From Pseudoflavonifractor phocaeensis (GTDB lineage Bacteria > Bacillota > Clostridia > Oscillospirales > Oscillospiraceae), in contig NZ_JADYTU010000003.1 in assembly GCF_021531375.1 (NCBI RefSeq), positions 47,317 through 111,316 of the forward strand: 64,000 nt of DNA, in the 5' to 3' direction. Under the pieces are notes generated by a model that was given only the letters and a program-made list of their open reading frames with translations, did no database searches and was not told the origin of the DNA. How positions within the stretch are numbered: position 1 is the stretch's first letter; the number at the start of each line of letters is the position of its first letter. Shown here piece after piece: positions 22,787-50,570 of the stretch. The translations under genes and the position numbers were made by a program.

Positions 22787-23364
22787 TCAATTTGCCGGAC
22801 ATTGCCGCCCGGTATGGTCGATGGTATAGGGCTGGGGAAGAATAATCTGGGAGATGGGGACAAAGGTATAGCCGTCCTGAAGGAGACATTCCAGAATGGT
22901 GGGGAGAGCCTCGGGGGTGTGCTTGGCGGCGTTATGGAACAGGACGATGGAACCGGGGCAGACCTTGGAGGTGACCCGCTTGGTGATCTCGTCGGCGGAG
23001 ATGTCCTTCCAGTCCAGACTGTCCACGTCCCACTGAATGGGCTCCATGCCGATGGAGCGGACGGCGTTGATGGAATGGTCGTCGTAGTCGCCGTAGGGCA
23101 GGCGGACCAGAGTGGGGCGGACGCCGGTGACCGCTTCGATCTTATCGTTGCAGGCGTTCAGATCGGCTACCACCTGGTCGGTGGACAACTGGGGGTAGTG
23201 GGCGTGGGTATTGGAGTGGTTCATCACCTCATGGCCCGCATCGTGGAGGGCCTTGACGGATTCGGGGTATTTCTCCACCCACTCGCCTACTACGAAGAAG
23301 GTTGCTTTGATCTGGTATCGGCCCAGAATGTCGATCAGCTGCTGAGTGTCTTCATTGCCCCAGG
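22787..23364 (-). pseudogene. pdaB: C-terminal part of an interrupted PdaB-like polysaccharide deacetylase
   Basis: From WGNEDTQQLIDILGRYQIKA onward this is the NodB-type deacetylase domain of a Clostridial PdaB-like protein. It has HSNTH (metal-binding histidines), RLPYGDYDD (motif 3), QWDVDSLDW (motif 4), GSIVLFHNA (motif 5) and a DHTGRQCP end. The signal segment and the catalytic Asp of motif 1 are missing here. They lie at 50378-50570, also on the minus strand, 27 kb away. The frame can be extended into the mobile element to a TTG at 23395, but there is no ribosome-binding site and no export signal, so this half is probably not made. Joining at the CCCCAGG core restores the frame exactly. 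Confidence 0.85.
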
Positions 23365-23365
23365 G
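23354..23365. other. left attachment junction (attL-like) of the serine-recombinase element
   Basis: ATTGCCCCAGGG here and ATTACCCCAGGC at 50373-50384 share CCCCAGG plus ATT. Deacetylase coding sequence lies on the outer (lower) side and element sequence on the inner side. The recombinase gene ends 150 bases inward, the usual place for an integrase beside its site. Confidence 0.75.
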
Positions 23366-23480
23366 CGATATTATATTGCGGACGTTGGGCCCCAAGGTTT
23401 TCAGGGATCAGCGCCCGCATTTTTCTGAAAATCAGTACAGCACAGCACAAATTAGCTATAAAGGCAGGAGCTTTCTCCCC

Positions 23481-23510
23481 AAAAAGAGCGGAGGAAGCCA
23501 GGCTCTCCTC
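23481..23510 (-). terminator. possible terminator of the recombinase gene
   Basis: On the minus strand GAGGAGAGCC/GGCTTCCTC forms an imperfect stem followed by CGCTCTTTTTGG, directly after the recombinase stop codon. Confidence 0.45.
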
Positions 23511-23514
23511 TGCC

Positions 23515-25095
23515 CTACCGTTCCAGGACCCCCAGGTCATCGGAAAACGTGTATGTAATTTCCACCCGGTTATCCTCAAAGACCAGGATCTGCTTGATGG
23601 TCTCGGCCACGGTGGTCCGGTCAAGGGCGGTCAGCTTTCCCTGCCGCAAAAGCTCCGTGGTCCACGGACTGTCCACTTTGTTCCGGGGCTTGTTCAGCTG
23701 CTCCAACTGGCCGGAAAGCAGTCTCTCCTGGCGTTTGTAGTCCTCCTGATAGCGCAGGAAATCTTCTTTTGGGATAAGACCGTCTTTGTAGTCCTCATAG
23801 GCCGACTTCTTCAGCCTGCGGACCCGCTCCAGACTGCCCCGCAGGCGGTCCCGCTCCCCTTTGCGGTCGTAGGTCTTTGCCTCGGGCCGGGCCTCCTCCG
23901 CCAGTTTCTTCAGGTCGCCCACCGCCGAGATGATCTTGTTCAGGTCCTCCAGCACGATCTGCTCCAGCATCCGGTACGAGATGCCGTGGCGGCTGCACAC
24001 CGTTGGTCCGTACCGCTTGTAGGAGCCGCAGCAGTAGTACGCGCCGCCAGGACCGTTGGTCTTGCTCATGGCCCGTCCGCAATCGCCGCAGCGCAAAAAA
24101 CCGGCGAAAGGGCTGACATTTTCCTTGAAATTCAGCGTCCGGGTGTCCCGCTGCAGCAGGGACTGGACCCGCTCCCACTGCTCCACATTAATAATGGCCT
24201 CGTGGGTATTTTCCACTACCGCCCATTGCTCTTTTGCCAAAAGTTTGGCCCTGCCGTGCATGGTCTGGCGCGGAGCCCTCCCCTGTTCCATGTTGCCCGC
24301 GTACATCTGGTTTTTCAGGATGCGGTGGATGGTGGCGTAGGTCCAGTAGGTCGTCCCGCCCAGCTTTTGTCCGTTGTGGTACTTTTCGCCGTTGAGCTTT
24401 TTGTACTCGCTGGGACAGGGCACCCCCTCGGCGTTTAACAGCTTGGCGATCTTGACCTTTCCGTTCCCCTGCTCAAACAAGGTGAAGATCCGCCGCACCA
24501 CAGCCGCCGCGGGCGGATCAATGACCAGGCGGTTATGGTCCTGGGGGTCCTTCCGGTAGCCGTAGGAGGCGAACGCCCCAATAAACTCGCCGCTGCGCTG
24601 CTTGGCCCGGAAGGAGCTTCGCACCTTTTGTGAAATATCCCGGGCGTACTGCTCGTTGATGATGTTTTTCACTGGCAGCAGCATGTCATAGGGCCCCTTC
24701 TCACTGTCGATGTTGTCCCCGATGGCGACAAAGCGCACGCCGCGCTCCGGAAACCACCGCTCCAGATAGCGCCCCACGTCGATGTAGTCCCGGCCAAAGC
24801 GGGACAGGTCCTTCACCACCACGCAGTTGATCCGTCCCGCCTCAATGTCGCCGATCAGCCGCTGAAAATCCGGGCGGTCAAAGTTGGTGCCTGTGTAGCC
24901 GTCATCCACATAGAGCTGGGCATACTGCATGTCCGGCTGCCGGGACAGGTAGTCCTCCAGCAGCTTCTTTTGATTGGAGATGCTGTCGCTCTCCGGCTTG
25001 TCCCCGTCCTCCCGGGACAGGCGTGTGTAGAGGGCGGCGCGCCACATGGCTCCGCCGGCGTGATCCGTGTTTGGAATGTGCCGTGTGCGGGCCAT
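23515..25095 (-). CDS. large serine recombinase (site-specific integrase/excisionase)
   Basis: The 526-residue protein starts at 25095, with AAGGGAGG 7 bases upstream. The N-terminal resolvase domain carries the nucleophile Ser27 (ALYTRLSRED) and conserved KDLSRFGRDYIDVGRYLE. A recombinase domain follows (SYGYRKDPQD...LFEQGNGKVKIAKLLN). A zinc ribbon (CGDCGRAM...YYCCGSYKRYGPTVC), a coiled coil (about 400-480) and a short C-terminal tail complete it. All domains are present, so it should be active. Such enzymes join attP and attB one way and need a partner protein to excise. It lies 150 bases from the left junction of the element it presumably moves. Confidence 0.93.
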   Translation of the reverse strand: MARTRHIPNTDHAGGAMWRAALYTRLSREDGDKPESDSISNQKKLLEDYLSRQPDMQYAQLYVDDGYTGTNFDRPDFQRLIGDIEAGRINCVVVKDLSRFGRDYIDVGRYLERWFPERGVRFVAIGDNIDSEKGPYDMLLPVKNIINEQYARDISQKVRSSFRAKQRSGEFIGAFASYGYRKDPQDHNRLVIDPPAAAVVRRIFTLFEQGNGKVKIAKLLNAEGVPCPSEYKKLNGEKYHNGQKLGGTTYWTYATIHRILKNQMYAGNMEQGRAPRQTMHGRAKLLAKEQWAVVENTHEAIINVEQWERVQSLLQRDTRTLNFKENVSPFAGFLRCGDCGRAMSKTNGPGGAYYCCGSYKRYGPTVCSRHGISYRMLEQIVLEDLNKIISAVGDLKKLAEEARPEAKTYDRKGERDRLRGSLERVRRLKKSAYEDYKDGLIPKEDFLRYQEDYKRQERLLSGQLEQLNKPRNKVDSPWTTELLRQGKLTALDRTTVAETIKQILVFEDNRVEITYTFSDDLGVLER

Positions 25096-25134
25096 GGGCG
25101 CGCCTCCCTTCTGACGCACGTTTTGTTTGCCGGT

Positions 25135-25278
25135 TTATACAGGCTCTGTATGGGCGCAGATCAGCCGTCTCAGCATCTCCCGGCTCTGGCGTTCACAGGA
25201 GAAGCGGCGCTCCACTCGGATTTTACGAGCAGCCTGCGCTTTCTCCGGGGGCGTATGTACCGTCTCAGACTTTGGCAT
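25135..25278 (-). CDS. 47-residue basic protein upstream of the recombinase
   Basis: This small frame was found by reading the minus strand: ATG at 25278, stop TAA at 25135, with AGGAAAGG 9 bases upstream. The product is very basic (KIRVERRFSCERQSREMLRR in the middle) and ends LICAHTEPV. Its stop lies 39 bases before the recombinase start on the same strand, so the two are probably co-transcribed. Its size and place recall the small TnpV/TnpW-type proteins of Clostridial Tn elements and the partner proteins that set recombinase direction. That role is a guess from position, not homology. Confidence 0.55.
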   Translation of the reverse strand: MPKSETVHTPPEKAQAARKIRVERRFSCERQSREMLRRLICAHTEPV

Positions 25279-25590
25279 ATGGCGCGTCCTTTCCTACTGT
25301 ATTGTGGGCAATGTAAAATTATTCGCAGGAACCGCCGGATAGAAGCGAGTCGATGCAATAAGCCGAAATTATAAAATATGCGGCAAGGGGATGGGACGAA
25401 ACAATATGGCAAAAGCGTGCGTATCTGTGTCCGCACCGGACCCTAAGTTAAACCATTTTGCCCAGGGGAAGGTTATACCTTTTGGCCGAAAATGGAGGCT
25501 TTATAGGGTTGAAATACGAACTTGCTTGCTATATAATGAACTCACTAAAATGGGGTGATATAAGCCCCAATGCAATTGGAGGAACTCACT
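25279..25590. other. intergenic region between recombinase module and polysaccharide locus
   Basis: This 310-base AT-richer stretch separates the minus-strand recombinase pair from the plus-strand polysaccharide genes. It carries the locus promoter (25509-25537) and, on the other strand, presumably that of the recombinase pair, which I could not pinpoint. Confidence 0.5.
25509..25537 (+). promoter_or_regulatory. sigma-A promoter of the polysaccharide locus
   Basis: TTGAAA (25509-25514), a 17-base spacer and perfect TATAAT (25532-25537) lie 54 bases before the first gene. Confidence 0.75.
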
Positions 25591-28074
25591 GTGAGCGGAA
25601 AGAAACCCAGTATCCGAATGGGGAAGCAGCCGGCAGTGCAGGCTGTGCCGGACACGCCCACCCCTGTTTCGGAACCGATCACAAAAAAAGATCAGATTTG
25701 GATCGCGGCCTACGCGGTCCTGTTATTCCTGGCCATGACTGTTCAGACCGGCGCCATGACGCTGTTTCTGACGGTCCTGGCTTTGGTATTGTCCGTTGGA
25801 AAGGGGCCTTTGAAGCGCTTCAGGGCTCGCTTTTGTATCCCGGTGATCGGGCTGCTGGCTTTTGCCCTGATGAACGGGCTGGCAGCCATCTACTCCGACT
25901 TCGGCAGCTACGCCGTGGGCGAATATTACAAGTTCTTGGCCGCCTTTTCCATGGCGGTGATCCTGCTGGCCCGGTTTGAGAAAAAGCATGTGCGGGGCCT
26001 GCTGTGGGGCTTTGCCGGAGTCGCGGCTGTAATTTCGCTGCTGTGCATTGATATGGGCAGCTTTGGAAAGCTGTTTGACCTGTTTGCCGGGGTGATGGGC
26101 TCACTGGGCGCTGATTATTCCAGCGTCCTGGAGAATAGCCAAGGCATCCGTGTCAACGGTATCTATAATGACGCGAACGTTACCGGCGCACTTCTGGGGA
26201 CCGCAGTCCTTCTGGGGCTCCATCTGGTCCATACGGAGCGCGATACCAGACGGAGGGTGCTGGCTTCCCTGCTCATGGGCGTTTCCGCCGTTGGCTTTCT
26301 CATTGCCATGAGCCGTGGCGCGATCTTGTGCTTCGGAGTGGCGGCGTTGGTCTATCTGGCTGCTGTAGACGCCAAGGACCGGTTTTCCCTCTTTGCCCTG
26401 ATGCTGGCGCTGGGTGTGTCACTGGCCGCTACCGGGGCGGTCGCTATGACGCATATGGCGGAGGGGGCCTTCCTGCCTGTCCTCATGGCCCTCCTCTGCG
26501 GTGGGATCGCTTTCCTGCTGGATTGGGGCGTGGGTCAACGGGTGGCCCGCAAGCTGTCCGGCCACGGAAAGGCGGTGGCCGCGGTCTGCATAGGATTGAT
26601 CCTTGTGGTATGCGGACTGGGTTTCGCGGCCATGCAGGTGACGGAGCCCTATGTCTTTGAGGATGGCTCTCACCTCTACCGATCTTTGGCGCTGGAACCG
26701 GGGGAGTACACGGTTTCTGGTGACTGGGACGGCGAGGATACCACCAATGTGCTGATTTACAGCCGGAGCGATGAGGAAGCTCTGATGAATCAGACGACCA
26801 CGCTATACCGGGGAACGCTGGCGGACGCCCGCTTTACCGTTCCGGAAGATTCTGTACTTGTATTTTTCTGGTTTACAGGGGCACCGGGTGATACACTGCG
26901 GTCGGTTTCCCTGTCAGATGGGCACAATGTTCCCTTGTCTTACCGGTGGGTGCCGGAGATGATCGCCTACCGCCTGCAGGAAGGGTTCCTTCATGGACAC
27001 AGCTACCTGCTGCGCGTGCAGTTTATGAAAGATGCCTGGACCCTCTTTACCAAGAGTCCTCTGATCGGTCACGGTCTGGGCTCCACGGAGGGCCTGTATA
27101 CGGCGGTCCAGCCCTTCTATTACGAGTCTCTCTATGTGCATAACCACATCCTGCAGGTCATGTCTGACATGGGCCTGTTGGGCCTGCTGTCGTTCCTTGC
27201 TCTGCTGGCAGGCGCGCTGTGGCTGATCGTCTGCCAGCTCCGGAGTGAGCAGCGTGCGTTACCCGCAATGCTCCTCGCCTGTTGGGTCATGATCAATACC
27301 CACAGTATTATGGAGATCAATTTTTCTATCCGCGCGTTTCAGTGCTTTGCCTATCCGCTGCTGCTCCTGCCTGTGGTGCTCTACGGAAAGCCCATGGCTC
27401 AGAAGGCTGTGAAGCGGTGTGGTTTGGCGGCAGCGGGCTTTGTTTGGGCTTATTTGGCGGTGTTTGGCGGACTTCTGGCCAGCCATCGCATGGTCCAGCA
27501 GGCGGCGGCCGATTTCACGCCCAGCAGCGCCTATCAGCTGATGCACACTATGGAGACCTATACCCAGCGGGATGTGTTTGACCATGAGCAGTACCAGCTC
27601 AACTATGTGGGCAATGCTGTTCTGCTGAACGACAGCAGCTACGCGGCAAACGCGGATAAGTATGTGAAGGCTTTGAGATCCTCCGGTACCTATACCGCCT
27701 GCTCGGGTCTGGCGAGATATTATTACCTGCCGCTGGGTGAGTTTGAGGGGCTGTTTGCCTGTTCTCGGGAGGGGATCGCCCAGGAGGCGTCCGCCAAGGA
27801 GTCCTGGAATCTGCAGTTGGATTTCTATCGCAATGAGGTGCTGCCCGCCGCCGGTACGGAACATATTGGCGAGTTTATGGATGGTGTGCTGGCGCTGCGG
27901 GACTATTTGACCGAGTACAGCCAGGGCCGTCTGGAGGAGATCCAGTTGACGGAGGAAAATCAGAGCTTCCTCTCGATGGTGTCTTCCGCGGAGGAGAACG
28001 GTATTTCCGGAGAGGCGGCTTATGTGCTGCTGACCACTCTGGCCGCTGGGGCATCTGAGAGCACGACTCCCTGA
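25591..28074 (+). CDS. O-antigen ligase/polymerase-like membrane protein (Wzy/WaaL type), large
   Basis: The 827-residue protein starts at GTG 25591, where GGAGG lies 8 bases upstream; the in-frame ATG at 25570 lies before that site and is rejected. It has about 12 membrane segments. The Wzy_C-type core holds VNGIYNDANVTGALLGTA and AMSRGAILCFG. A large extracytoplasmic insert (about 350-450) precedes the typical SPLIGHGLGSTEG...VHNHILQVMSDMGLLG region. A soluble C-terminal part (about 620-827) has no known motif. Such proteins polymerise or transfer lipid-linked glycans outside the membrane. It is first in the locus, and a second Wzy-like gene lies at 38182. Confidence 0.8.
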   Translation: MSGKKPSIRMGKQPAVQAVPDTPTPVSEPITKKDQIWIAAYAVLLFLAMTVQTGAMTLFLTVLALVLSVGKGPLKRFRARFCIPVIGLLAFALMNGLAAIYSDFGSYAVGEYYKFLAAFSMAVILLARFEKKHVRGLLWGFAGVAAVISLLCIDMGSFGKLFDLFAGVMGSLGADYSSVLENSQGIRVNGIYNDANVTGALLGTAVLLGLHLVHTERDTRRRVLASLLMGVSAVGFLIAMSRGAILCFGVAALVYLAAVDAKDRFSLFALMLALGVSLAATGAVAMTHMAEGAFLPVLMALLCGGIAFLLDWGVGQRVARKLSGHGKAVAAVCIGLILVVCGLGFAAMQVTEPYVFEDGSHLYRSLALEPGEYTVSGDWDGEDTTNVLIYSRSDEEALMNQTTTLYRGTLADARFTVPEDSVLVFFWFTGAPGDTLRSVSLSDGHNVPLSYRWVPEMIAYRLQEGFLHGHSYLLRVQFMKDAWTLFTKSPLIGHGLGSTEGLYTAVQPFYYESLYVHNHILQVMSDMGLLGLLSFLALLAGALWLIVCQLRSEQRALPAMLLACWVMINTHSIMEINFSIRAFQCFAYPLLLLPVVLYGKPMAQKAVKRCGLAAAGFVWAYLAVFGGLLASHRMVQQAAADFTPSSAYQLMHTMETYTQRDVFDHEQYQLNYVGNAVLLNDSSYAANADKYVKALRSSGTYTACSGLARYYYLPLGEFEGLFACSREGIAQEASAKESWNLQLDFYRNEVLPAAGTEHIGEFMDGVLALRDYLTEYSQGRLEEIQLTEENQSFLSMVSSAEENGISGEAAYVLLTTLAAGASESTTP

Positions 28075-28255
28075 TTTCATATGAGCCCCCTGGCAATTTT
28101 ATCGCACCCTGGCATGGGGCGCCGGTGAAATTTCCGGGGCCGCTTTTTATGCGGTTGAGATTTTTTGAGTTAGACCGTATGGTTTGACCATGCCTGTGGT
28201 TCAAGGAACCTCAACAGTAGCGTTCTGGGATAGCCTATTATTTAGGAGGCCCTTT

Positions 28256-28882
28256 ATGTATGCTAAACATTTTAAACGATTGATAGACCTTCTTTTGTCC
28301 GCTGTGGGACTGATAGTGCTGTCCCCGCTTTTTCTGGTCTTAGCCATCGCCATCAAGTTGGATGACCCCGGCCCGGTGTTTTTCCGGCAGAAGCGGGTGG
28401 GCATCCACAGGAGCTACTTTGAAATATTGAAGTTCCGCACCATGAAGATGGACACCCCCCACGACATGCCCACCCATCTGCTGGAGAACCCGGACCAATA
28501 CATCACCCGGGTGGGGCGGTTCCTGCGCAAGACCTCCCTGGACGAGCTGCCCCAGATCGCCCAGATCTTTACCGGGAAAATGTCTATCATCGGCCCCCGG
28601 CCTGCCCTCTGGAACCAGTATGACCTGATCGACGAGCGGGACAAATACGGCGCCAACGACGTGCGCCCCGGCCTGTCCGGCTGGGCCCAGATCAACGGTC
28701 GCGACGAGCTGCCCATTGCGGTGAAGGCCCGGTATGACGGCGAGTACGTGGAGCGCATGAGCTTCCTGTTTGACTGCAAATGCTTCTTTGGAACCATCGG
28801 CAAGGTCCTCAAGCGCGAGGGCGTGGTGGAAGGCGGCACCGGGGAGCTGGAGAAGCGGGAAAAGGAGACAGCCGCGAAATGA
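28256..28882 (+). CDS. undecaprenyl-phosphate sugar phosphotransferase (priming transferase)
   Basis: The 208-residue protein starts at 28256 after AGGAGG. It has one membrane segment (about 12-33) and the bacterial sugar transferase domain: DPGPVFFRQKRVG, LKFRTMKMDT, TSLDELPQI, MSIIGPRPALW, RPGLSGWAQINGR. The small size fits the PglC/WbpL-like class, which moves an N-acetylated sugar-1-phosphate from its UDP form to undecaprenyl phosphate and so starts repeat-unit assembly. The stop overlaps the next start (ATGA). Given the dehydratase at 43251, the likely primer sugar is a 6-deoxy-HexNAc; this is inference. Confidence 0.9.
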   Translation: MYAKHFKRLIDLLLSAVGLIVLSPLFLVLAIAIKLDDPGPVFFRQKRVGIHRSYFEILKFRTMKMDTPHDMPTHLLENPDQYITRVGRFLRKTSLDELPQIAQIFTGKMSIIGPRPALWNQYDLIDERDKYGANDVRPGLSGWAQINGRDELPIAVKARYDGEYVERMSFLFDCKCFFGTIGKVLKREGVVEGGTGELEKREKETAAK

Positions 28883-29721
28883 AACGGATTTTGGTGGCGG
28901 GCGCCTGCAGCTATCTGGGCAGAGCTTTTGCCCGGTATATGAACCAGTGGCCGGAGGCCTACCGGGTGGACCGGGTGAGGACCTCCGACGGCAGCTGGCG
29001 GGAGAAGGATTTTTCCGGCTATGACGTGGTGTACTGCGTGGCAGGCATCGCCCATATCAAGGAAACCCCGGAAAACGCCCATCTGTATCAGGAGGTCAAC
29101 TGCGATCTGGCCGCGGCCCTGGCGGAGAAGAGCAAGGCCGCCGGTGTGCGGCAGTTCCTGTACCTCAGCTCCATGAGCGTCTATGGTCTGACCACCGGCG
29201 TCATCACGCCGGAGACCCGGCCCAGTCCCAATACGGCCTACGGCCGCTCCAAGCTGGCCGCCGAGGAGCGGCTGGCGGCGCTGGCCGACGGGACCTTCAC
29301 CGTGGCCATCCTGCGGCCGCCCATGGTGTACGGCAAGGACTGTAAGGGCAACTTCCAGACGGTTTTGAAGCTGGTCAAAAAACTGCCGTTTTTTCCCCTG
29401 TGTGAAAACGCCCGGAGCATGCTCTATGTGGACCATCTCAGCGCCTTCGTAAAGCTCCTGGTGGACTGGGAGCTGGGGGGCCTGTTTTTCCCGCAGAACC
29501 GGGACTATGTGCAGACCTCCCACATGGCGTCGCTGATGGCGGATGCTCTGGGGAAGCCCCTGCGGCTCAGCCGCCTGGCGGGCTTGGGGGTCCGGGTACT
29601 GTGCCCGCTGGTGCCCATGGCCCGGAAGGCCTTCGGCAGTCTGGTTTACCGGGACACCGAGGCGTTTGATTTCTGCTACTGCGAGACCCCCTTTGACGAG
29701 ACCATCCGAAGGAGTGTGTGA
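28879..29721 (+). CDS. NAD-dependent sugar epimerase/dehydratase (4-ketoreductase-like)
   Basis: The 280-residue short-chain dehydrogenase begins at 28879, overlapping the preceding stop. Its nucleotide-binding motif is divergent (GACSYLGRAF), while the catalytic STYK pattern is clear (SSMSVYG then YGRSKLAAE, Tyr-x-x-x-Lys). LRPPMVYGKDCKGNF is typical of extended SDRs such as WbpV/WbpK, which reduce UDP-4-keto-6-deoxy-GlcNAc to UDP-QuiNAc or UDP-FucNAc. That fits with the WbpM/CapD-type dehydratase at the other end of the locus. The exact product stereochemistry cannot be read. Confidence 0.8.
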   Translation: MKRILVAGACSYLGRAFARYMNQWPEAYRVDRVRTSDGSWREKDFSGYDVVYCVAGIAHIKETPENAHLYQEVNCDLAAALAEKSKAAGVRQFLYLSSMSVYGLTTGVITPETRPSPNTAYGRSKLAAEERLAALADGTFTVAILRPPMVYGKDCKGNFQTVLKLVKKLPFFPLCENARSMLYVDHLSAFVKLLVDWELGGLFFPQNRDYVQTSHMASLMADALGKPLRLSRLAGLGVRVLCPLVPMARKAFGSLVYRDTEAFDFCYCETPFDETIRRSV

Positions 29722-29730
29722 GGTGCGCCC

Positions 29731-30540: not shown

Positions 30541-30543
30541 ATT

Positions 30544-41354: not shown

Positions 41355-41366
41355 TATATGCTCTTC

Positions 41367-41507: not shown

Positions 41508-41767
41508 TCGCCGTCACCTCCATACAGCAGGTTCGCCATCAGGTCCTCCAGGTCCTCGATGCGCTGCTCCTGGGAGGGGTGGTCCGCCCGCCAGTCCGCC
41601 CGGAGGGTGCCGGCGCAGTCCGCCGTCTCGGACAGCTCCCAGCCCTCCGCGAAGGGCCCGTAAACGGTGCCGTCGTCGGCAATTGCCTGATCGGCGGTGT
41701 AGGAGGCCACCTGCTCCAGGGTCTGTTCCGGCGTCTCCGCGCCGGTTTTGTAGAGATACAGTGTCAT
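41504..41767 (-). CDS. 87-residue phage tail-associated protein
   Basis: The acidic protein begins MTLYLYKTGAETPEQTLEQV and has a small beta-rich domain (DDGTVYGPFAEGWELSE) plus a helical end. Proteins with this opening follow tail-fibre genes in Clostridial prophages, so a tail accessory or fibre-chaperone role is inferred. AAAGGAGG precedes the ATG. It lies 11 bases after the fibre gene and overlaps the next small gene. Confidence 0.65.
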   Translation of the reverse strand: MTLYLYKTGAETPEQTLEQVASYTADQAIADDGTVYGPFAEGWELSETADCAGTLRADWRADHPSQEQRIEDLEDLMANLLYGGDGE

Positions 41768-41778
41768 ATGTTCCTCCT

Positions 41779-42858: not shown

Positions 42859-43250
42859 ATCTGCTTCAGCTCCTTTGTATGTTCAGTTGGCCGCCTCCCT
42901 GGCCGGAAGGTCGGCTTTTCTTCATCCTAACGAACCCGTCTGTCTCCGGCACTGGAAACGGTTCACAAAACGCCTGCGGAAACCGTTTCCCTGTTTTCCT
43001 TGATCATAGCCCGGAAAATCCACTATATTGATGACTTTTATATCAGATGTTTTTCGTTCGGAATCATGTCGCAGGGCGGTTTTAAAATCATGGCGGGGAA
43101 CTGTTTTCCAGCAGATAAATTTGTCGAAATGCCTTTCCAACCTCAAATGATTGTGCTATATTGTTATAGATAAAGTAACAATCCGTTGCTTTTGCATGTA
43201 TTTCGCCGGGACCTCAGGGCCCGATCGTAATCGGAAAGGCAGAAACAACC
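42859..43250 (+). other. intergenic region before the CapD-type gene
   Basis: This 390-base, AT-rich gap lies between divergent genes. A TATATT (about 43160) followed by further AT-rich sequence may be the promoter for the CapD gene, with a poor -35. I see no RNA gene and no clear remnant. Confidence 0.4.
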
Positions 43251-45176
43251 ATGAGCCGTTTTCGCAAGCCCCTTCTTTTTTTCTGTGATAGTCTGATCCT
43301 GCTGGGTGTCACACTGACCCTCAGTAAGTTTTCCCTCCGATATGGCCTCCCCGATGCCGTAGGCCGGGGCCTGCTGCTGAAGCACCTGTTGGTGCTGTAT
43401 GCCTGTACAGCGGTCTTTCAGCTGCTGTTCCACACATATGACAGTCTCTGGCGCTACGCGGAGAGCAGGGAATACCTGTCCTTGCTGACAGCCGCCTTCT
43501 GCGGCTTTCTGGCCTATGAGGTCATCAGCCGCGCTCTGATGGACAGCGTCATCTCCTTCATCCTGCTGGTGGCCATCGCCTGCCTGTGGGTACTGGGGAT
43601 GCTGCTGGTCCGGTTTTCCTACCGGGTCTACCGCAGCCGGGTCCTGTTCCGGCGGGGAGGCCCCCGGGTCCCCGTGGCCATCATCGGCGCCGGGGCCGCG
43701 GGCGTGCAGCTGCTGGAGGAGCTGCAAAGCAATCCCGACAGCCATTACACCGTTCAGTGCTTTTTCGACGACGACCCCGCCAAGGTCCACAACCGGATTC
43801 ACGGAGTGGAGGTCAAAGGGCGTATCGCGGACATTCCCGACCGCCTGCGGGCCATGGACATCCGGGAGTTGCTGGTGGCGATCCCCTCCATTTCGGAAGA
43901 CCGCCGCCATGAGATCTTGCAGGAGCTGTCCGGCCTGGAGCGGGTGCGGGTGACCATCCTGCCCAGCACTTTGGACCTGATCGCCCAGAAGCCCATCCGC
44001 AGCCAGCTGCGGGAAATCCGGATCGAGGACCTGCTGGGCCGGGAGCCGGTGCGGCTGGACCCTGCCCCGGTGGACGATTTCCTGGGCGGAAAGACAGTCC
44101 TGGTGACAGGCGGAGGCGGCTCTATCGGCTCCGAGCTGTGCCGCCAGATCGCCAAGCACCATCCCAAGCGGCTCATCATCGTGGATATTTACGAAAACAA
44201 CGCCTACGACATCCAGCAGGAGTTGCTGTACCACTTCGGCAAACGGCTGAATCTGGTGGTGGAGATCGCCTCTGTCCGGGACGGGGAGCGGCTGCGGCAG
44301 CTCTTCGCCATGTACCGGCCCGACGTGGTGTTCCACGCCGCCGCCCACAAGCACGTGCCGCTCATGGAGCAGAGCCCCCAGGAGGCGGTGCGGAACAACG
44401 TATTCGGAACGCTGAACCTAGTGCGGACGGCGGATGAGTACGGCGTGGAAAAGTTCATCCAAATCTCCACAGACAAGGCCGTGAATCCTACCTCCGTCAT
44501 GGGCGCTACCAAGCGGCTGTGCGAGATGATCTTGCAGTCCATGAAGGGGCAGAGCGGGACCACCTTTGCCGCGGTGCGTTTCGGCAACGTACTTGGGTCC
44601 AACGGCAGTGTGGTCCCCCTGTTCAAGCGGCAGATCGCCGCTGGAGGCCCCATTACCGTCACGGACAAGCGGATCATCCGCTACTTCATGACCATCCCCG
44701 AGGCGGCCCAGCTGGTGCTCCAGGCGGGGGCCATGGCCCGGCAGAACGAGCTGTACGTGCTGGACATGGGCCAGCCGGTGAAAATCCTGGACCTGGCGGA
44801 GAATCTGATCCGCCTGTCCGGCTACGTGCCCTACCGGGACATTGACATCGTGGAGACCGGCCTGCGGCCCGGCGAGAAGCTGTACGAGGAGCTGCTGATC
44901 GCCAGCCGGGACATTGAAAAGACGGAAAACGACCAGATCTTCGTGGAGCGTCAGCCCGGTATCACCCCGGAGGAACTGCGGGGCAAGCTGGCGGTGCTGT
45001 CGGCGGCCCTGGAGAAAAACGACCCCACTGTTATTCGGGACGCATTGCACCAGGTGGTGCCCACCTTCCACGAGCCGGAAGACCTGAACCGGGATCAGGG
45101 AGACGAGGTCCGAATACCGGAACCGAACGTGGAAGAAAAGGAGAACAGCGTGGTCTGCGGCAGCGCCACGCGGTAA
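43251..45176 (+). CDS. membrane-bound UDP-N-acetylhexosamine 4,6-dehydratase, CapD/WbpM type
   Basis: The 641-residue protein has four N-terminal membrane segments (about 8-125), a CoA-binding-like domain (about 140-250), then an extended SDR domain. The latter has the NAD motif LVTGGGGSIGSELCRQI, HAAAHKHVPLME, the catalytic ISTDKAVNPTSVMGATKR and FGNVLGSNGSVVPLF. Such enzymes convert UDP-GlcNAc to UDP-4-keto-6-deoxy-GlcNAc. The reductase at 28879 could finish the sugar. It is full length for the WbpM/CapD group and stands alone on the plus strand. Confidence 0.92.
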   Translation: MSRFRKPLLFFCDSLILLGVTLTLSKFSLRYGLPDAVGRGLLLKHLLVLYACTAVFQLLFHTYDSLWRYAESREYLSLLTAAFCGFLAYEVISRALMDSVISFILLVAIACLWVLGMLLVRFSYRVYRSRVLFRRGGPRVPVAIIGAGAAGVQLLEELQSNPDSHYTVQCFFDDDPAKVHNRIHGVEVKGRIADIPDRLRAMDIRELLVAIPSISEDRRHEILQELSGLERVRVTILPSTLDLIAQKPIRSQLREIRIEDLLGREPVRLDPAPVDDFLGGKTVLVTGGGGSIGSELCRQIAKHHPKRLIIVDIYENNAYDIQQELLYHFGKRLNLVVEIASVRDGERLRQLFAMYRPDVVFHAAAHKHVPLMEQSPQEAVRNNVFGTLNLVRTADEYGVEKFIQISTDKAVNPTSVMGATKRLCEMILQSMKGQSGTTFAAVRFGNVLGSNGSVVPLFKRQIAAGGPITVTDKRIIRYFMTIPEAAQLVLQAGAMARQNELYVLDMGQPVKILDLAENLIRLSGYVPYRDIDIVETGLRPGEKLYEELLIASRDIEKTENDQIFVERQPGITPEELRGKLAVLSAALEKNDPTVIRDALHQVVPTFHEPEDLNRDQGDEVRIPEPNVEEKENSVVCGSATR

Positions 45177-45205
45177 AGCGGCCGCTTAGCGGAAAAGGAA
45201 AAATG

Positions 45206-45240
45206 ACAGCGCCTGTGGTTGGAGCCGTAGGCGCTGTTTG
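45206..45240 (+). terminator. terminator after the CapD-type gene
   Basis: ACAGCGCCT pairs with AGGCGCTGT and runs into TTG. The stem is 9 base pairs with a 14-base loop and a short T tract. Confidence 0.55.
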
Positions 45241-45448
45241 AATATACCGTCCTTTTACCTGGGACTGGGAGCGCGGTACTATAATGAAACGCTTTAACGA
45301 TGTAAAGAGGTACTGTGAGATTCAGAGGCTTTGTATAGGTTCGGGAAAAAGTCTGCGCGCCGCCCTTGGCTCAAAAAATCTGGTTGCGGATTTACCGGAG
45401 ACGTGCCATACTGATCTTGATAGATGACAATATAAGGTGGTGGGAGTC

Positions 45449-46249
45449 ATGCGCGCAGCCATGATCCAGATGAAGGTAGTACATGACAAACAGCAGAATC
45501 TGATCCATGCGAGGGAACTGTTGTACCAGGCGGCCCAGGATGGAATTGATCTGGCCGTGCTGCCGGAAATGTTCTGCTGTCCCTATTCCAACCGCTTCTT
45601 CCGCGCATATGGCGAGGAAGAGGGCGGCGTGGCTTGGACCGCTCTGTCCCAGACCGCCCGGGAGCTGCAAATCTATTTGGTGGGAGGCTCCATGCCGGAG
45701 CTTTCTGACGGGAAGGTGTACAACACCTCTTATGTCTTTGACCGGGGAGGACGGCAGATCGCGAAGCACCGGAAGGCGCACCTGTTCGACATAGACGTGG
45801 AGGGTGGACAGCGGTTTCGGGAATCGGAAGTGCTCAGCCCGGGCAGCCAGATCACCGTGTTTGACACGGAATTCGGTAAAATCGGCCTGTGCATCTGCTT
45901 TGATTTTCGCTTTCAGGAGCTGGCGAAGACCATGGCCGACCGGGGCGCCCAGTTGATCGTGGTCCCCGCGGCCTTCAATATGACCACTGGCCCGGCCCAT
46001 TGGGAATTGCTGTTCCGGCAGCGGGCAGTGGATAATCAGATTTTTACCTTGGGGACCGCGCCGGCCCGGGACGAGACAGAGGAGTATGTCTCCTATGCGA
46101 ACTCCATTCTGGCGGACCCCTGGGGTACGGTTGTGGCCCGGGCCGGCACAGGGGAGGAAGTGCTTCTGGCCGAGATCGACTTTGCCCAAAATGAAGCCAT
46201 CCGCCGGCAGCTCCCCATTCGCTCCGCCCGGCGCGGCGACCTGTATTGA
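45449..46249 (+). CDS. carbon-nitrogen hydrolase (nitrilase superfamily, omega-amidase-like)
   Basis: The 266-residue protein carries the full catalytic triad: Glu40 (LAVLPEMFCCPY), Lys109 (HRKAHLFDID) and Cys150 (GLCICFDFRF). The size and the PEMF and KAHLFD motifs place it near Nit2/omega-amidase enzymes, which hydrolyse alpha-keto-succinamate and similar amides. AGGTGG lies 8 bases before the ATG; GTG 45437 is less likely. It has no evident link to polysaccharide synthesis and may be independent cargo. Confidence 0.88.
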   Translation: MRAAMIQMKVVHDKQQNLIHARELLYQAAQDGIDLAVLPEMFCCPYSNRFFRAYGEEEGGVAWTALSQTARELQIYLVGGSMPELSDGKVYNTSYVFDRGGRQIAKHRKAHLFDIDVEGGQRFRESEVLSPGSQITVFDTEFGKIGLCICFDFRFQELAKTMADRGAQLIVVPAAFNMTTGPAHWELLFRQRAVDNQIFTLGTAPARDETEEYVSYANSILADPWGTVVARAGTGEEVLLAEIDFAQNEAIRRQLPIRSARRGDLY

Positions 46250-46345
46250 CCCGCCGACACTCCTGACCGAAGGGGGCCGCTCCGCCGGATGGCTGGAAAT
46301 TGGGAACTTGTGCGGAGCGGCGGACAAAAGAAAATATTGAATGGA

Positions 46346-46380
46346 AAGGGGGACGCGGCTTGACCAACCGCGTCCCCTTA
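46346..46380. terminator. bidirectional terminator between convergent genes
   Basis: AAGGGGGACGCGG pairs with CCGCGTCCCCTT around a short loop, between the amidase gene and the convergent phosphoesterase gene. Confidence 0.75.
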
Positions 46381-46411
46381 AAGTTATCTGTTACGCTCCA
46401 CAGGGCCTGAC

Positions 46412-47002
46412 TCAATACTCAAACACATAATATCCGCTGGCGTTGATCGTTGTGGTATCACCATGGCTGGACCGCTGGGGAATATTGGGGCCGTAGCTGC
46501 GGTGGATATGACCGTGGACAAAGTATTTCGGACGGTACTGCTCCAGCAGGTCCGTGAAACACACGAAGCCCCGGTGAGGCAGCGAGTCAAAATCGTTGAT
46601 GTGCCGAGCCGGGGCGTGGGTCATCAGGATATCGAAACCGCCGCTCCGCCAAAGGCGGAACTTCAGCTTTCGGATACGGCGCGCCATCTGGGACTCGGTG
46701 TACATATGCGTTCCGTCCCGGTAGCGGTAAGAGCCGCCCAGTCCCAGGATCCGGACGCCCCGGTAGGTGTAGATCTGGTCTTCCACGCAGATGCAGCCGC
46801 CGGGCGGTGCGGCGTCAAAAGAATCGTCGTGGTTGCCATGGACATACAGCACCGGACAGTGGGCCAGGGTGGCCAGAAATTCCAGATATTCCTTCCGCAG
46901 ATCTCCGCAGGCCAGGATCAGGTCAAATTCATCCAGCTTCCCGGGGGAGTAATGATCATAAAAATATTTGGATTCCTCATCCGCAACGGCTAAAATTCTC
47001 AT
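46412..47002 (-). CDS. calcineurin-like metallophosphoesterase
   Basis: The 196-residue protein has metallophosphoesterase motifs: LACGDLRKEYLEFL, YVHGNHDD, MTHAPARH and VHGHIHRSYG. The N-terminal Asp-x-His is altered to ADEESKY, so one metal site may be changed. It overlaps the ParB-like/BMP gene by 4 bases and should be made with it. The family cleaves phosphomonoesters or cyclic nucleotides; the substrate is unknown. Confidence 0.85.
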   Translation of the reverse strand: MRILAVADEESKYFYDHYSPGKLDEFDLILACGDLRKEYLEFLATLAHCPVLYVHGNHDDSFDAAPPGGCICVEDQIYTYRGVRILGLGGSYRYRDGTHMYTESQMARRIRKLKFRLWRSGGFDILMTHAPARHINDFDSLPHRGFVCFTDLLEQYRPKYFVHGHIHRSYGPNIPQRSSHGDTTTINASGYYVFEY

Positions 47003-48993
47003 TTCTGTCCTCCGGCCTTACTGGGAGGTGTCGTCTGTTCCTTCGCCTGTGCCATCGGCTCCTTAGAAGACTGCCGTTCCTCGGTGAACAGATCGATGCC
47101 CACAATGCCCACGGTGGCCTTTCCGGTATCATTCAATTCCTCGTAGACCGGGATGGAACCCTCAATGTTTTCCACCAGCCAGTCCATATTGATGATCTGT
47201 TCCAAACTCAGGGATTGTCCCTTTTTTGCCATCAGTCTGCCGCCTTGGGCGTACAGCGGACCCTGGAAGGGACCGTACAGTCCGGCGCAAATCCCTTCCC
47301 GGAGCAGGGACGCCAGCTTCTTCGATCCGTCCGGCACTCTGTCTGAGCAGCGAAGATCCACTACCCCGGCGGACATTCCCCAGTAGTAATTCAGGGCCTT
47401 GCTGCTCTCCTCATATTCCAACTGGAAGGACTTGCTCTGGATCCGGCGGAGCATGGATTCGTAATAGACGCCCCACTGCCAGACCGGCATGGCCAGGGGG
47501 ACCTGGCCATCTTCATTGATCAGGGACAGACCGAAGCTGCTGTGCCTTCCGTCCTCCCGCTTTGCCAGATCCTGGGAGGAAATCAGCCGAATCCCACGGT
47601 CGGTCAGCCGCTTTGCGGCGGCGGCCACGCCGTCTACAGCGGACCACTCCAGATAGACCTTTACTCTGGGATTTACCAGCTGTACTCCCAGCGCAAAGGC
47701 GTTGATCCCGGCCATCTGGCCGAAAATAGGATAATCGCAGATATATCCCACAGGATTGCTGCCTGCCAGAGAACCGGCGATGGCCCCGATGATAAACTTT
47801 ACCTCGTACATTCTGGCATAGTAGGTACGGATATAGCGGTGGGATTTATTCAGGGAGCAGTTCAGGATCACACACTCCGGATGGTCCACCGCCGCGCGCA
47901 GGCTGGCGGGAAGCAGCCGGGGCGAGGTGGTAAAGATGGTGGTATTGCCGTCGGCGATGGCCCGCTCGATCACTTGCAGCGGATCGCCGTCCAGGGCGTT
48001 AAAATAGGCGGTGGTCTCCAGTTCTCCCTGGAACACCCGCTGTACATGTTGGCGTCCCAGCTCGTGGCCAAAGGTCCAGCCGGACGTGTCCTGGTTCTTG
48101 TCGTGGATAAAGGCGGCCTTCCGCACTTCGGTTTTGCTCTTGAACACCTTGGAGAGAAGCCCGCCGCCCGTCTCCTCCTCCGGGATCAGCTTGACGTCGA
48201 TGGGCGTCTCTTCCTGCTGGAGGGTGATGTCCTCCCAGACCCGGGCCACGGCCTTCTTGATCTCCGCTGCGCTCCGGCTTCGGAGGGACGGATAGCCGTA
48301 GATCTTGATATAAGCCAGCATGGCGTCCCCCACCGTGGAGCTCAGACGCTTTCCGCCGTTGGCCTCGTAGGCCTGACGGAAATAGTAGTACGCCGTGGAA
48401 AAGCCGCTGCGGTCCTCATCTGTCCAGGGCTCTTCCGGGCCCTTGCCCAGCAGCCGCTGCAGTTGGGAAAAACTGCCCAGCTTTGAGAATTCAATAAAAT
48501 TGACTTTGCTGAGCCGGTAGAACTCCAAGAATTCGTAGTAGAGCTCCACATCCTTCTGCCCGTTCCGTTCCGGCAGAATACGGGTCACCTGGGCATATAC
48601 CGTGTCCGCGCCGAAGAATTTCAACACGCTGACCCGCTTGTTGCCCTCCTCCACATAGAAGCGGTTCATATATTCATAGGCCTTGATGGGGTCCCGGATT
48701 CCTTTCTCCAGGTGGGACTGGCAGAGGTTCTGCCACTTTTTCGCAAACTCGCTCTCCTCGGGAAGCAGCGGCATAAAGTTCCGGGCAAAGGCCTCAGTCC
48801 GCTGTCTGCTCCTGGTACCCACAAGGAACTCCATGGGCACCTGAACAACACCCAGATCCATTCCCTGAAACATGCGCTCGGCAGGGACCAGGTCATCCAG
48901 CACCGGGAGATAGGGGGACAGCCCCTTGGCGGTACAAGCGCGAAATTCTTTCTGGCCCAGCTTCTGCGCATCTTTGTAATAGAGGGTGGGCAT
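46999..48993 (-). CDS. cytoplasmic fusion: ParB-like N-terminal domain plus BMP-family (PnrA-like) domain
   Basis: The 664-residue protein has no signal peptide or lipobox, unusual for the BMP group. Residues about 90-150 hold a ParB/sulfiredoxin-like box (FYVEEGNKRVSVLKFFGAD then VYAQVTRILP). A helical middle follows (150-290). Residues about 295-640 form a type I periplasmic-binding fold with TSGWTFGHELGRQHVQRVF, LAGSNPVGYICDYP and INAFALGVQLVNPRVKVY. BMP/PnrA domains usually bind nucleosides. A soluble nucleoside sensor, or an enzyme working with the overlapping phosphoesterase, is inferred. AAGGAG lies about 10 bases before the ATG. Confidence 0.75.
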   Translation of the reverse strand: MPTLYYKDAQKLGQKEFRACTAKGLSPYLPVLDDLVPAERMFQGMDLGVVQVPMEFLVGTRSRQRTEAFARNFMPLLPEESEFAKKWQNLCQSHLEKGIRDPIKAYEYMNRFYVEEGNKRVSVLKFFGADTVYAQVTRILPERNGQKDVELYYEFLEFYRLSKVNFIEFSKLGSFSQLQRLLGKGPEEPWTDEDRSGFSTAYYYFRQAYEANGGKRLSSTVGDAMLAYIKIYGYPSLRSRSAAEIKKAVARVWEDITLQQEETPIDVKLIPEEETGGGLLSKVFKSKTEVRKAAFIHDKNQDTSGWTFGHELGRQHVQRVFQGELETTAYFNALDGDPLQVIERAIADGNTTIFTTSPRLLPASLRAAVDHPECVILNCSLNKSHRYIRTYYARMYEVKFIIGAIAGSLAGSNPVGYICDYPIFGQMAGINAFALGVQLVNPRVKVYLEWSAVDGVAAAAKRLTDRGIRLISSQDLAKREDGRHSSFGLSLINEDGQVPLAMPVWQWGVYYESMLRRIQSKSFQLEYEESSKALNYYWGMSAGVVDLRCSDRVPDGSKKLASLLREGICAGLYGPFQGPLYAQGGRLMAKKGQSLSLEQIINMDWLVENIEGSIPVYEELNDTGKATVGIVGIDLFTEERQSSKEPMAQAKEQTTPPSKAGGQK

Positions 48994-49343
48994 CAATCAC
49001 CATCTCCTTGTTTATTCCGGTCATTCTCACAATCTTTCCGGACATATTTTACCCCGAAAGGGTACCTTTGGGCAACTGTTTTATGGCCTGCGGAGGTCTT
49101 TAACGGCTATGATCGACGTGTTAAAAGAGGACCCCAGTCTGCCGGGCTGCATCGGGAGTAGCTTGCGGCATCCTTCCCCCACGCTGCTTCCGGTATGAGC
49201 ATGATTCGCCGGATTTTGCCAATCTCAGAAAGCCGTGCTATAATGGCGGCAGACGGCCCGGCGGGCCCCGAGCCTTTGACGCGCCCGAGAGGCGGACGGG
49301 TGCTTGGCCGTTGACCGACGATTTTTTACACAGGAGCCGAACT
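48994..49343 (+). other. intergenic region between the BMP fusion and VanZ genes
   Basis: This 350-base gap between divergent genes carries the VanZ promoter (49216-49244) and a short GC-rich inverted stretch (about 49250-49275). I see no further gene. Confidence 0.5.
49216..49244 (+). promoter_or_regulatory. sigma-A promoter of the VanZ-like gene
   Basis: TTGCCA (49216-49221), a 17-base spacer and an extended -10 (TGCTATAAT, ending at 49244) lie 100 bases before the start codon. Confidence 0.75.
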
Positions 49344-50285
49344 ATGAACCAAATTCGCTGTTTTGACGTCCTGCGCGCTGCCGTCTGGCTGCCCGTCCTG
49401 CTCTGGTACAGAGTCATATGGAACTTTTCCGCTCAGACCGCGGCGGTCTCCGGGGACTTGTCTGACCGGCTGCTGTGGCGGCTGCTCCACAGCCTGTCCC
49501 CGGTGTTCGCCGGGGCGGACGCCGCGGCCCAGAACGCCGCCGTGGAGGTGCTGTCCTTTTTTGAGCGGAAGGCGGCGCACATGTTTTTGTACTTTGTGCT
49601 GGCTCTACTGGTTTTGTTTGCCCTCTCTTTCCTGTTGCGGCAAAAGGCTGCTAGGGGCGCTGCGACGGCCCTGCTGTGCGCGGCGCTGGCGGGGTTGGAT
49701 GAGTTTCACCAGACCTTTGTGCCCGGACGCAGCGGGCAACTCCGGGACGTTTGCATTGACCTGGCTGGCGGAGCGCTGGCATTGGGCCTGGTGGCCCTGC
49801 TGCTGTGGACGGGCCATGTCCGCCGTGGAAGGACGAGGCCTGGGCTGACGGTGCGCGCCCTGCTGCCGGTCCTGCTGTGCGCGGGAGCGCTGGCGGCGGC
49901 CCCGGCGCTGGCGGCTTCACAGTCGGCGCTTCCCGTTTTGAGCGGGCTGGCCGCCCGCTTCGTGCCGGGTTTTTCCGCCATGGACACCTCCGCCCAGGCA
50001 GAGCTGCTGCGTGCCCTCCAGCCCATTGCAGGCGACACGCTTCGGCTGGGCCTGTGCGGGCTGCTGGGATGCAGTGCGGTACTGTCCGCGGCCCTGTGCG
50101 GATTGCCGCTGCCAGGAGCGCTGCTGGTGTCCATTCCCGCGTTGCTGCTGGGGAGCGGCGTTTTTGGATGGCTGGAAGGGTCTGACATCTCCTCTTGCAT
50201 AGGGCTGACCGGGGCAGGTGTACTGCTGGCCGCCGTCATCTGGCTGGCAGCTCTGGGGCGCAAAGATTGCAGGAAGCTCCCTTGA
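49344..50285 (+). CDS. VanZ-family membrane protein with C-terminal extension
   Basis: The 313-residue protein has about eight membrane segments. The first 165 residues match VanZ: WYRVIWNFSAQTAAVSGDLS, FFERKAAHMFLYFVLALLVL, and the DEFHQTFVPGRSGQLRDVCID signature. The second half is an Ala/Leu-rich membrane extension without a known motif. CAGGAG lies 8 bases before the ATG. VanZ relatives are linked to resistance against lipid II- or wall-targeting agents. It is the last gene of the element, 90 bases from the right junction. Confidence 0.85.
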   Translation: MNQIRCFDVLRAAVWLPVLLWYRVIWNFSAQTAAVSGDLSDRLLWRLLHSLSPVFAGADAAAQNAAVEVLSFFERKAAHMFLYFVLALLVLFALSFLLRQKAARGAATALLCAALAGLDEFHQTFVPGRSGQLRDVCIDLAGGALALGLVALLLWTGHVRRGRTRPGLTVRALLPVLLCAGALAAAPALAASQSALPVLSGLAARFVPGFSAMDTSAQAELLRALQPIAGDTLRLGLCGLLGCSAVLSAALCGLPLPGALLVSIPALLLGSGVFGWLEGSDISSCIGLTGAGVLLAAVIWLAALGRKDCRKLP

Positions 50286-50363
50286 CCGGACAGCCCGGGA
50301 GGAGCGCCTTTGCCCAGGCCAGCGGCTGGCCGGGACCCGAGAAGCCTTGAGGATGGGGAAGCG

Positions 50364-50570
50364 CTAAATAGCATTACCCCAGGCCGCGTCGAAACTGATG
50401 GATACCAGTTTCTGATCCCGCTGGACGCAGTAGATGGGCAGCTGCCGCGTGGCTGCGGACACCCCCACCGCCGTTGGGAAGTTTACCATAGAGAAGATCC
50501 CCAGTGCCGCCAGCAGGCAGCCCCCAAGGGACAAAAGCCTGCGCCTGAGCAAAATGACCTTGACTTTCAT
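50364..50570 (-). pseudogene. pdaB: N-terminal part of the interrupted PdaB-like polysaccharide deacetylase
   Basis: The frame starts at 50570 with AAGGAGGAG 4 bases upstream. It encodes a basic start and membrane/signal segment (about 10-38), then QLPIYCVQRDQKLVSISFDA and AWGN, which is motif 1 of the NodB domain with catalytic Asp61. Two residues later it enters the mobile element and stops (AI, TAG). The remaining domain lies at 22787-23364 on the same strand. Joined at the shared core, the product has 254 residues, the usual PdaB length. As it stands, only a 68-residue exported stub could be made. Confidence 0.88.
50373..50384. other. right attachment junction (attR-like) of the serine-recombinase element
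   Basis: ATTACCCCAGGC here matches ATTGCCCCAGGG at 23354-23365 except for two bases. Deacetylase N-terminal coding sequence lies on the higher-coordinate side and element sequence on the other. See the mobile-element entry for the join. Confidence 0.75.

What the first reader, a model, noticed from the sequence alone, without database searches (positions are those of the whole stretch)
22787..50570. A 27-kb serine-recombinase element splits a PdaB-like polysaccharide deacetylase gene
Seen directly: the N-terminal part (50378-50570) ends in SFDAAWGN and the C-terminal part (22787-23364) begins with WGNEDT, both on the minus strand and in the right order. The block between them starts with a complete large serine recombinase. 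Each junction carries CCCCAGG inside ATTRCCCCAGG. Joining them gives GCC TGG GGC AAT GAA, in frame, and a 254-residue protein of normal family length. Known: skin-type elements interrupt sporulation genes in Bacilli and Clostridia and leave in the mother cell. Inference: this is a comparable element in a deacetylase gene, but its cargo is a surface-polysaccharide locus.
Basis: partly seen in the sequence, partly recalled or inferred. Interest (0 to 1): 0.95.

Follow-up and report, generated by a model that had tools for sequence, protein, structure and literature searches.

The report
Capsule-carrying element splits sporulation-type gene
In a relative of the gut bacterium Pseudoflavonifractor, a gene resembling a spore polysaccharide deacetylase is cut in two by a 27-kb DNA segment that carries its own recombinase and a surface-polysaccharide gene cluster; the segment likely leaves the DNA of the dying mother cell during spore formation and so would restore the gene.

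Summary
One PdaB-like gene lies in two pieces around a 27,019-bp block with CCTGGGG direct repeats at its ends and a TnpX-like large serine recombinase beside one end. Recombination between the repeats would give an in-frame 254-codon gene; the genome has no other orthologue. Of 64 same-genus genomes, 39 carry the gene whole (73-85% identical) and 16 carry it split, at two different sites: site 1 (this one) in 5, site 2 in 13, both in 2. Each site goes with its own recombinase family: site 1 in 4 of 5 split and 0 of 56 other genomes, site 2 in 8 of 10 and 0 of 51. No split piece compared holds a stop, and pN/pS is as low as in whole genes. The host has sigE, sigF, sigG, sigH, spoIVA and SASP, and its sigK is split by another recombinase element. 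Relatives' pdaB promoters look sigma-E-like. I read this as a skin-type element with a new target, two target sites and capsule cargo. Excision and its timing are not shown. Against: degenerate att arms and a weak pdaB promoter in this genome, no sigma-E-like promoter above chance in the element, and related species described as non-spore-forming.

The parts
50364..50570 (-). 5' part of the PdaB-like gene (host codons to about 50384, then a few element codons and TAG)
   Evidence: whole orthologues in 39 of 64 same-genus genomes
50621..50628 (-). CATATAGT, the -10-like element of the pdaB promoter; the -35 region is a poor sigma-E match in this genome
50377..50383 (-). core CCTGGGG at the 5' junction (attL), followed by a degenerate attP arm
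23365..50383 (.). the intervening element, 27,019 bp from core to core
49311..50285 (+). VanZ-family protein
46412..48996 (-). metallophosphoesterase (46412-47002) and a protein with a Bmp/PnrA-like domain (46999-48996)
45437..46249 (+). carbon-nitrogen hydrolase
43251..45176 (+). CapD-type polysaccharide biosynthesis protein (Polysacc_synt_2)
41504..42858 (-). tail-fibre-like gene (41779-42858, phrog_7037, 3.6e-15) and a small neighbour without a match
25570..41307 (+). surface-polysaccharide locus: Wzy/ligase-like membrane proteins, sugar transferase, glycosyltransferases, DegT aminotransferase, acetyltransferase, UDP-sugar dehydrogenase, epimerases, oxidoreductase, flippase-like protein (the last, the acetyltransferase and the epimerases named by sequence look)
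25135..25278 (-). 47-aa ORF just upstream of the recombinase; counterparts precede all four site-1 recombinases; candidate directionality factor (inferred, no family match)
23515..25119 (-). large serine recombinase, 534 aa, closest solved relative TnpX
23358..23364 (-). core CCTGGGG at the 3' junction (attR), preceded by a degenerate attP arm
22787..23357 (-). 3' part of the PdaB-like gene with most of the deacetylase domain

Best explanation
A 27,019-bp element with its own large serine recombinase interrupts a PdaB-like gene, and the recombinase is predicted to cut it out of the mother-cell chromosome during sporulation, which would rejoin the gene in frame while the spore would keep the element. 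Shown by sequence: one gene in two pieces, direct-repeat cores, a complete recombinase, an in-frame join, whole orthologues in relatives, and the same gene split in 16 of 64 congeners at two sites that track two recombinase families. Inferred: crossover at the TG of CCTGGGG, loss as a circle, sigma-E-driven expression of pdaB in the mother cell, and hence no loss from the germ line. The polysaccharide locus would be kept through vegetative life and thrown away only in the mother cell.
For: In-frame restorable junctions and unique repeats. Same site and core in G020, G044, G034 and G021. att arms symmetric around TG in G044 (20 of 21 positions) and G020 (17 of 21), as expected of a large-serine-recombinase attP. 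Site-1 recombinase (70-84%) in 4 of 5 site-1-split and 0 of 56 other genomes; site-2 recombinase (48-100%) in 8 of 10 and 0 of 51. No stop in the compared codons of 16 of 16 split genomes; median pN/pS against the nearest whole gene 0.112 (14 split) versus 0.134 (38 whole). sigE, sigG and spoIIAB over their cut-offs, best matches for sigF, sigH and SpoIIGA, spoIVA and SASP. sigK of the same genome split 14.6 kb apart with a serine recombinase next to the 3' part. Sigma-E-like promoters in 23 of 29 whole pdaB genes, sigma-G-like in 0 of 29. B. subtilis pdaB is listed as sigma-E regulon (passages) and SpoIIID binds upstream of ybaN (passage).
Against: No excised junction was seen anywhere searched (viral contigs). 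The window's att arms are the least symmetric (12 of 21; 9 of 18 outside the core). The window's own pdaB promoter scores 6.1, under the 95% level of 8.5, and two other split genes (G008, G045) fail too. One sigma-E-like site in the element against 2.4 expected, not placed before the recombinase. The PdaB model's cut-off is not reached. G046 has lost 4 bp at the core and G085 holds an extra, frame-damaged piece with both cuts, so some copies do decay. 7 of 64 genomes have no orthologue found. Related species are described as non-spore-forming (listing).
Confidence: 0.68

Rival explanations
1. Ordinary integration: elements with serine recombinases use conserved motifs of pdaB as landing sites, switch off a dispensable gene, and leave only to transfer; sporulation has no part in it.
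For: No sporulation promoter recognised in the element. 7 of 64 genomes have no orthologue found and G046 has a frameshift. Relatives are described as non-spore-forming (listing).
Against: Split pieces keep open frames and low pN/pS. Sister genomes G000 and G020 (support 0.85) are both split at site 1 and both pieces are kept between them, with pN/pS 0.20 overall and 0.11 and 0.08 in the two conserved parts. Two unrelated recombinase families and a split sigK all fall in sporulation-type genes.
Confidence: 0.17
2. A switch at population level: the element comes and goes in a fraction of vegetative cells, turning capsule and deacetylase on and off in opposite senses, with sporulation at most one trigger.
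For: The capsule-type cargo and a restorable surface-active enzyme would suit it. The yin element of C. botulinum is found excised at all time points (section read).
Against: Excision would lose a non-replicating circle, and no excised or empty form was seen in the one assembly held. pdaB promoters look sporulation-type.
Confidence: 0.08
3. In this strain the element is a fixed relic: it once behaved like a skin element, took in the neighbouring polysaccharide locus, and its att sites have since decayed so that it can no longer leave.
For: Degenerate arms. A related locus lies beside pdaB outside any site-1 element in G094 and G029. Own promoter weak. Recombinase placement differs between G000 and G020.
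Against: The recombinase is complete, the core and frame are intact, and both pieces are conserved.
Confidence: 0.15

Closest known systems
gin element in gerE, Bacillus cereus ATCC10987 (PMC5595907; abstract and Discussion read)
   Same: Non-phage element with a serine recombinase inside a sporulation gene; att site with imperfect inverted repeats around a short shared core
   Different: Target is gerE, not pdaB; gin has three recombinases; excision there is proven and needs a second protein, GirX; no capsule locus is named in the parts read
skin element in sigK (B. subtilis, C. difficile, C. tetani; passages in PMC4191935 and PMC5553647)
   Same: Recombinase-bearing insertion that splits a mother-cell sporulation gene; this genome also has a split sigK
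   Different: Different gene and a distant recombinase (the window's is 22% identical to that of its own sigK element)
SPbeta in spsM, B. subtilis (PMC4191935, passages)
   Same: att cores with inverted repeats, restores a polysaccharide-related spore gene; excision there is confined to the mother cell
   Different: SPbeta is an active phage; here one tail-fibre-like gene only
yin element in yabG, C. botulinum (PMC10747680, passages and Conclusions read)
   Same: Single-recombinase insertion in a conserved sporulation gene
   Different: Prophage-like and known from one strain; here two sites and 16 of 64 genomes
TnpX of Tn4451
   Same: Closest solved relative of the recombinase (2mhc, 7e-32)
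   Different: Tn4451 is a resistance transposon (recalled and listing); no developmental role known to me
fdxN element and XisF of cyanobacteria (role recalled)
   Same: XisF model hits the recombinase (100.5 bits)
   Different: Far under that model's cut-off of 375; target there is a nitrogen-fixation gene (recalled)

Membership tests
Skin-type (sporulation-gene-intervening) elements | Lies inside the reading frame of a sporulation gene | tested here: inconclusive
   Best family is sporulation PdaB but under its cut-off, as for whole relatives; sigma-E-like promoters in 23 of 29 whole genes, but not in this genome
Skin-type (sporulation-gene-intervening) elements | Direct-repeat att cores whose recombination restores the frame | tested here: met
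Skin-type (sporulation-gene-intervening) elements | Carries its own site-specific recombinase | tested here: met
   association with the site
Skin-type (sporulation-gene-intervening) elements | Excision confined to the mother cell during sporulation | not testable with these tools
   needs a culture; no excised junction in viral contigs
Skin-type (sporulation-gene-intervening) elements | Recombinase or directionality factor under sporulation control | tested here: inconclusive
   No sigma-E-like site above chance in the element (1 against 2.4 expected); other sigma factors' promoters in the element were not modelled
Skin-type (sporulation-gene-intervening) elements | Host makes spores | tested here: inconclusive
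   Sporulation genes present; spore formation itself not testable; related species described as non-spore-forming (listing)
Large serine recombinases (TnpX-like) | Resolvase, Recombinase and zinc-ribbon domains | tested here: met
   TnpX best solved match
TIGR02764 PdaB equivalog | Score at or above 237.4 bits | tested here: not met
   206.9 bits joined; 204.7 and 203.9 for two whole relatives
NF041201 XisF | Score at or above 375 bits | tested here: not met
   100.5 bits
Active prophage | Set of phage structural and replication genes | tested here: not met
   One tail-fibre-like gene among the proteins scanned; the polysaccharide genes were scanned against Pfam only

The most novel reading that the evidence does not exclude
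In this genus pdaB works like a gene with removable DNA introns: two distantly related recombinase systems own two positions in it, some species (G044, and G021 on partial evidence) keep the gene in three pieces that two recombinases must join, and the species of this window must clear both pdaB and sigK before it can finish a spore. The elements have become a parking place for capsule and transport genes that are thrown away only in the mother cell.
Probability: 0.4. Interest if true: 0.9.

Novelty: new variant of a known kind. Interest (0 to 1): 0.75.

Why it matters
It would add a polysaccharide deacetylase gene to the sporulation genes rebuilt by DNA excision. One gene would be a repeated target at two positions for two recombinase families, with some copies in three pieces. 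The whole, once-split and twice-split species form a natural series for asking why sporulation genes attract such elements, in gut commensals whose sporulation is poorly known. Capsule genes as cargo would be unusual. In the library searches made, judged from their listings and from the passages cited, I saw no paper that reports pdaB as an interrupted gene.

Tried and rejected
Forespore (sigma-G) control of pdaB: a profile from SASP genes of the same genus passed in 0 of 29 whole and 1 of 13 other upstream regions, so dropped. Different paralogues for the two halves: rejected. Active phage: close recombinases were not found in viral contigs (1 relative, 35%) or phage records (best 40%). Excised or integrated junctions in viral contigs: none for three patterns. 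Small ORF as a named directionality factor: no family match for the window's. Sporulation promoter in the element: none above chance. G094 as a mix of excised and integrated forms: rejected, since its two pieces differ in sequence where they overlap. A whole gene between the same two flanking operons: 0 of 79. A first pN/pS run let a few element codons into the G008, G013, G045 and G082 rows and blanked stops beforehand; it was replaced, which trims at the junctions and counts stops directly. Structure prediction and the protein database search were not used, as they would not bear on excision.

Full report
What is there. On the minus strand a PdaB-like gene starts at 50570 and runs to the core CCTGGGG at 50383-50377. 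It resumes after the second copy of the core (23364-23358) and ends at 22787. The cores are direct repeats. Joining them gives GCC TGG GGC AAT GAA and a 254-aa protein. The 11-mer ATTRCCCCAGG occurs only at these two places in 64 kb, 0.13 expected. The break falls at SFDAAWGN, the first catalytic motif of this enzyme class (motif assignment recalled), so neither half should be active.

The gene in relatives. The joined protein was searched in 80 genomes, own one included, and in 15 further same-genus genomes. Over the 64 same-genus genomes I count: contiguous 39; contiguous but shifted by a 4-bp loss at the site-1 core 1 (G046); split 16; one piece ending at a contig end and undecidable 1 (G025); none found 7 (G002, G004, G017, G026, G030, G080, G088). 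Split at site 1: G000, G020, G044, G021 (only the 3' junction seen) and G034 (only the 5' junction seen). Split at site 2, about 112 codons further on: G003, G008, G013, G014, G021, G035, G036, G044, G045, G082, G092, G093, G094 (G036 and G094 by the 5' junction only). G044 and G021 are split at both. G085 has a whole copy and an extra, frame-damaged piece with both cuts. Among the best 80 named relatives are Lawsonibacter, Pseudoflavonifractor, Flintibacter and Flavonifractor. The NCBIfam PdaB model is the best match but its cut-off is not reached, nor by the two whole relatives tested.

The recombination units. In the other genomes the site-1 junctions read GCCTGGGGTGATGTTATTTTGCGG and, on the far side, CCGYAAAATARCATYACCCTGGGGCAAY, with small variations. 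The two arms are symmetric around TG at 20 of 21 positions in G044, 17 in G020 and 12 in the window (9 of 18 outside the core; 2.8% of random window positions do as well). So the window's site is the most degenerate of the three. The attL pattern, with two mismatches allowed, hits 5 of 64 genomes: four in pdaB and one, G030, in a chromosomal spot without the gene, where it forms a complete attP-like palindrome. Recombinases of at least 70% identity occur in 4 of 61 genomes, all four site-1-split; one of the 57 others (G034) is site-1-split. The site-2 recombinase (at least 48% to that of G008) occurs in 8 of 61, all site-2-split; two further site-2-split genomes (G036, G044) lack it; Fisher p 1e-5 and 1.5e-8, not corrected for kinship. 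In genomes with many candidates only the best 24 or 26 were scored. Site-1 and site-2 recombinases are 23-27% identical; that of the own sigK element is 30-32% to site 2 and 22-23% to site 1.

Is the split gene alive? trims each piece at its junction, leaves out residues 62-68 and 176-180 and the second 3' copy of G020. No stop was found in 16 of 16 split genomes, in G046 (whose frameshift falls in the masked part) or in 38 of 38 whole ones. G038 (whole) and G025 were not in this run. Median pN/pS against the nearest whole gene was 0.112 for 14 split genes (G034 and G094 left out as too short) and 0.134 for 38 whole genes. The highest split values are G008 0.28, G000 0.25 and G020 0.23. In the tree of 53 genes G000 and G020 are sisters (support 0.85). 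They share the upstream esterase genes (82 and 93%) and polysaccharide genes, so the insertion may predate their parting; between them pN/pS is 0.20.

Sporulation setting. The own genome has sigE, sigG and spoIIAB over cut-off, and sigF, sigH and SpoIIGA as best matches under cut-off, spoIVA and a SASP. sigK is itself in two parts 14.6 kb apart, at the point where whole sigK reads on into EILM, with a serine recombinase beside the 3' part. In the genus search (61 genomes), G011, G084 and G045 also list two sigK parts. A sigma-E profile was built from those of 27 spoIVA promoters of the genus with a 14-bp spacer, and a sigma-G profile from 12 SASP promoters. They separate the two sets (27 of 27 spoIVA pass sigma-E, 0 sigma-G; 18 of 20 SASP pass sigma-G, 2 sigma-E). 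Of 29 whole pdaB regions (of 39) 23 pass sigma-E and 0 sigma-G. Of 13 others (11 split, G046, G025) 10 pass sigma-E and 1 sigma-G; the three that fail are the window, G008 and G045 (95% level from mononucleotide shuffles). B. subtilis pdaB is listed in the sigma-E regulon and SpoIIID binds its upstream region. Mother-cell control matters because excision there leaves the spore genome untouched, as shown for SPbeta (passages).

Cargo. A small ORF precedes all four site-1 recombinases. Then come about 16 kb of polysaccharide genes, a tail-fibre-like gene, a CapD-type gene and four others. The G020 element holds homologues (ligase 78%, DegT 92%, dehydrogenase 92%, CapD 81%) in the same order relative to the pdaB halves, but its recombinase sits at the other end and points the other way. 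G044's site-1 element has other genes (sequence look) and G008's 5.5-kb site-2 element has TRAP-type transporter genes (sequence look). Over the 64 genomes 22 have a relative of the ligase; the closest outside G000 and G020 is G094 at 54%. In G094 that locus (CapD 77%, ligase 53%, part of VanZ 65%) starts about 100 bp downstream of a pdaB copy, and in G029 a more distant one lies within 3 kb. The cargo may thus have been taken up from next door. In the 80 named loci only one (L076) shows cargo genes near pdaB at the limits used, apart from one distant recombinase.

Judgement. The site, the recombinase and the restorable frame are shown. Recurrence at two sites, kept pieces, a split sigK and mother-cell-type promoters in relatives make developmental excision the best reading, at about 0.68. 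The degenerate arms, weak own promoter, absence of a recognised sporulation promoter in the element, absence of any excised junction, and descriptions of related species as non-spore-forming (PMC12050419, abstract in the listing) keep it from being more.

Noticed in passing
L145 (G000:C11:157501-177000), parts at 1599-1958 and 16584-16931: sigK of the same genome is split by a 14.6-kb element with its own serine recombinase and helicase-like cargo.
   Followed up: partly
L039 and L040 (G044); L044, L045 and L301 (G021): pdaB cut at both sites, so the gene lies in three pieces (in G021 the first piece was not found).
   Followed up: partly
L300 / L244 (G030:C5:1680-1702): A complete attP-like palindrome (18 of 21 symmetric positions) in a chromosomal stretch without pdaB or a close recombinase.
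   Followed up: partly
L052 (G046), about 3076: pdaB contiguous but missing 4 bp exactly at the site-1 core: an imprecise-excision scar or an assembly error.
   Followed up: no
L043 15677-15922 (G020): A second copy of the 3' end of pdaB 13.6 kb downstream, unexplained; perhaps the end of a lost site-2 element.
   Followed up: partly
L042 2108-3703 against window 23515-25119: The recombinase sits at opposite ends of the element and in opposite orientation in G020 and the window, although both share polysaccharide genes in the same order.
   Followed up: partly
L314 (G094:C12) and L308 (G029:C27): Polysaccharide loci related to the cargo lie directly downstream of a pdaB copy.
   Followed up: partly
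L036 2657-8176 (G008): A 5.5-kb site-2 element whose cargo looks like TRAP transporter genes, with no phage gene noticed.
   Followed up: no
G011:C1:3055148-3195553: In a one-contig genome the two sigK parts lie 140 kb apart.
   Followed up: no
L299 8589-8921 (G085:C79): A piece of pdaB between both sites with a 1-bp loss, beside a whole copy on another contig; decayed second copy or contamination.
   Followed up: no
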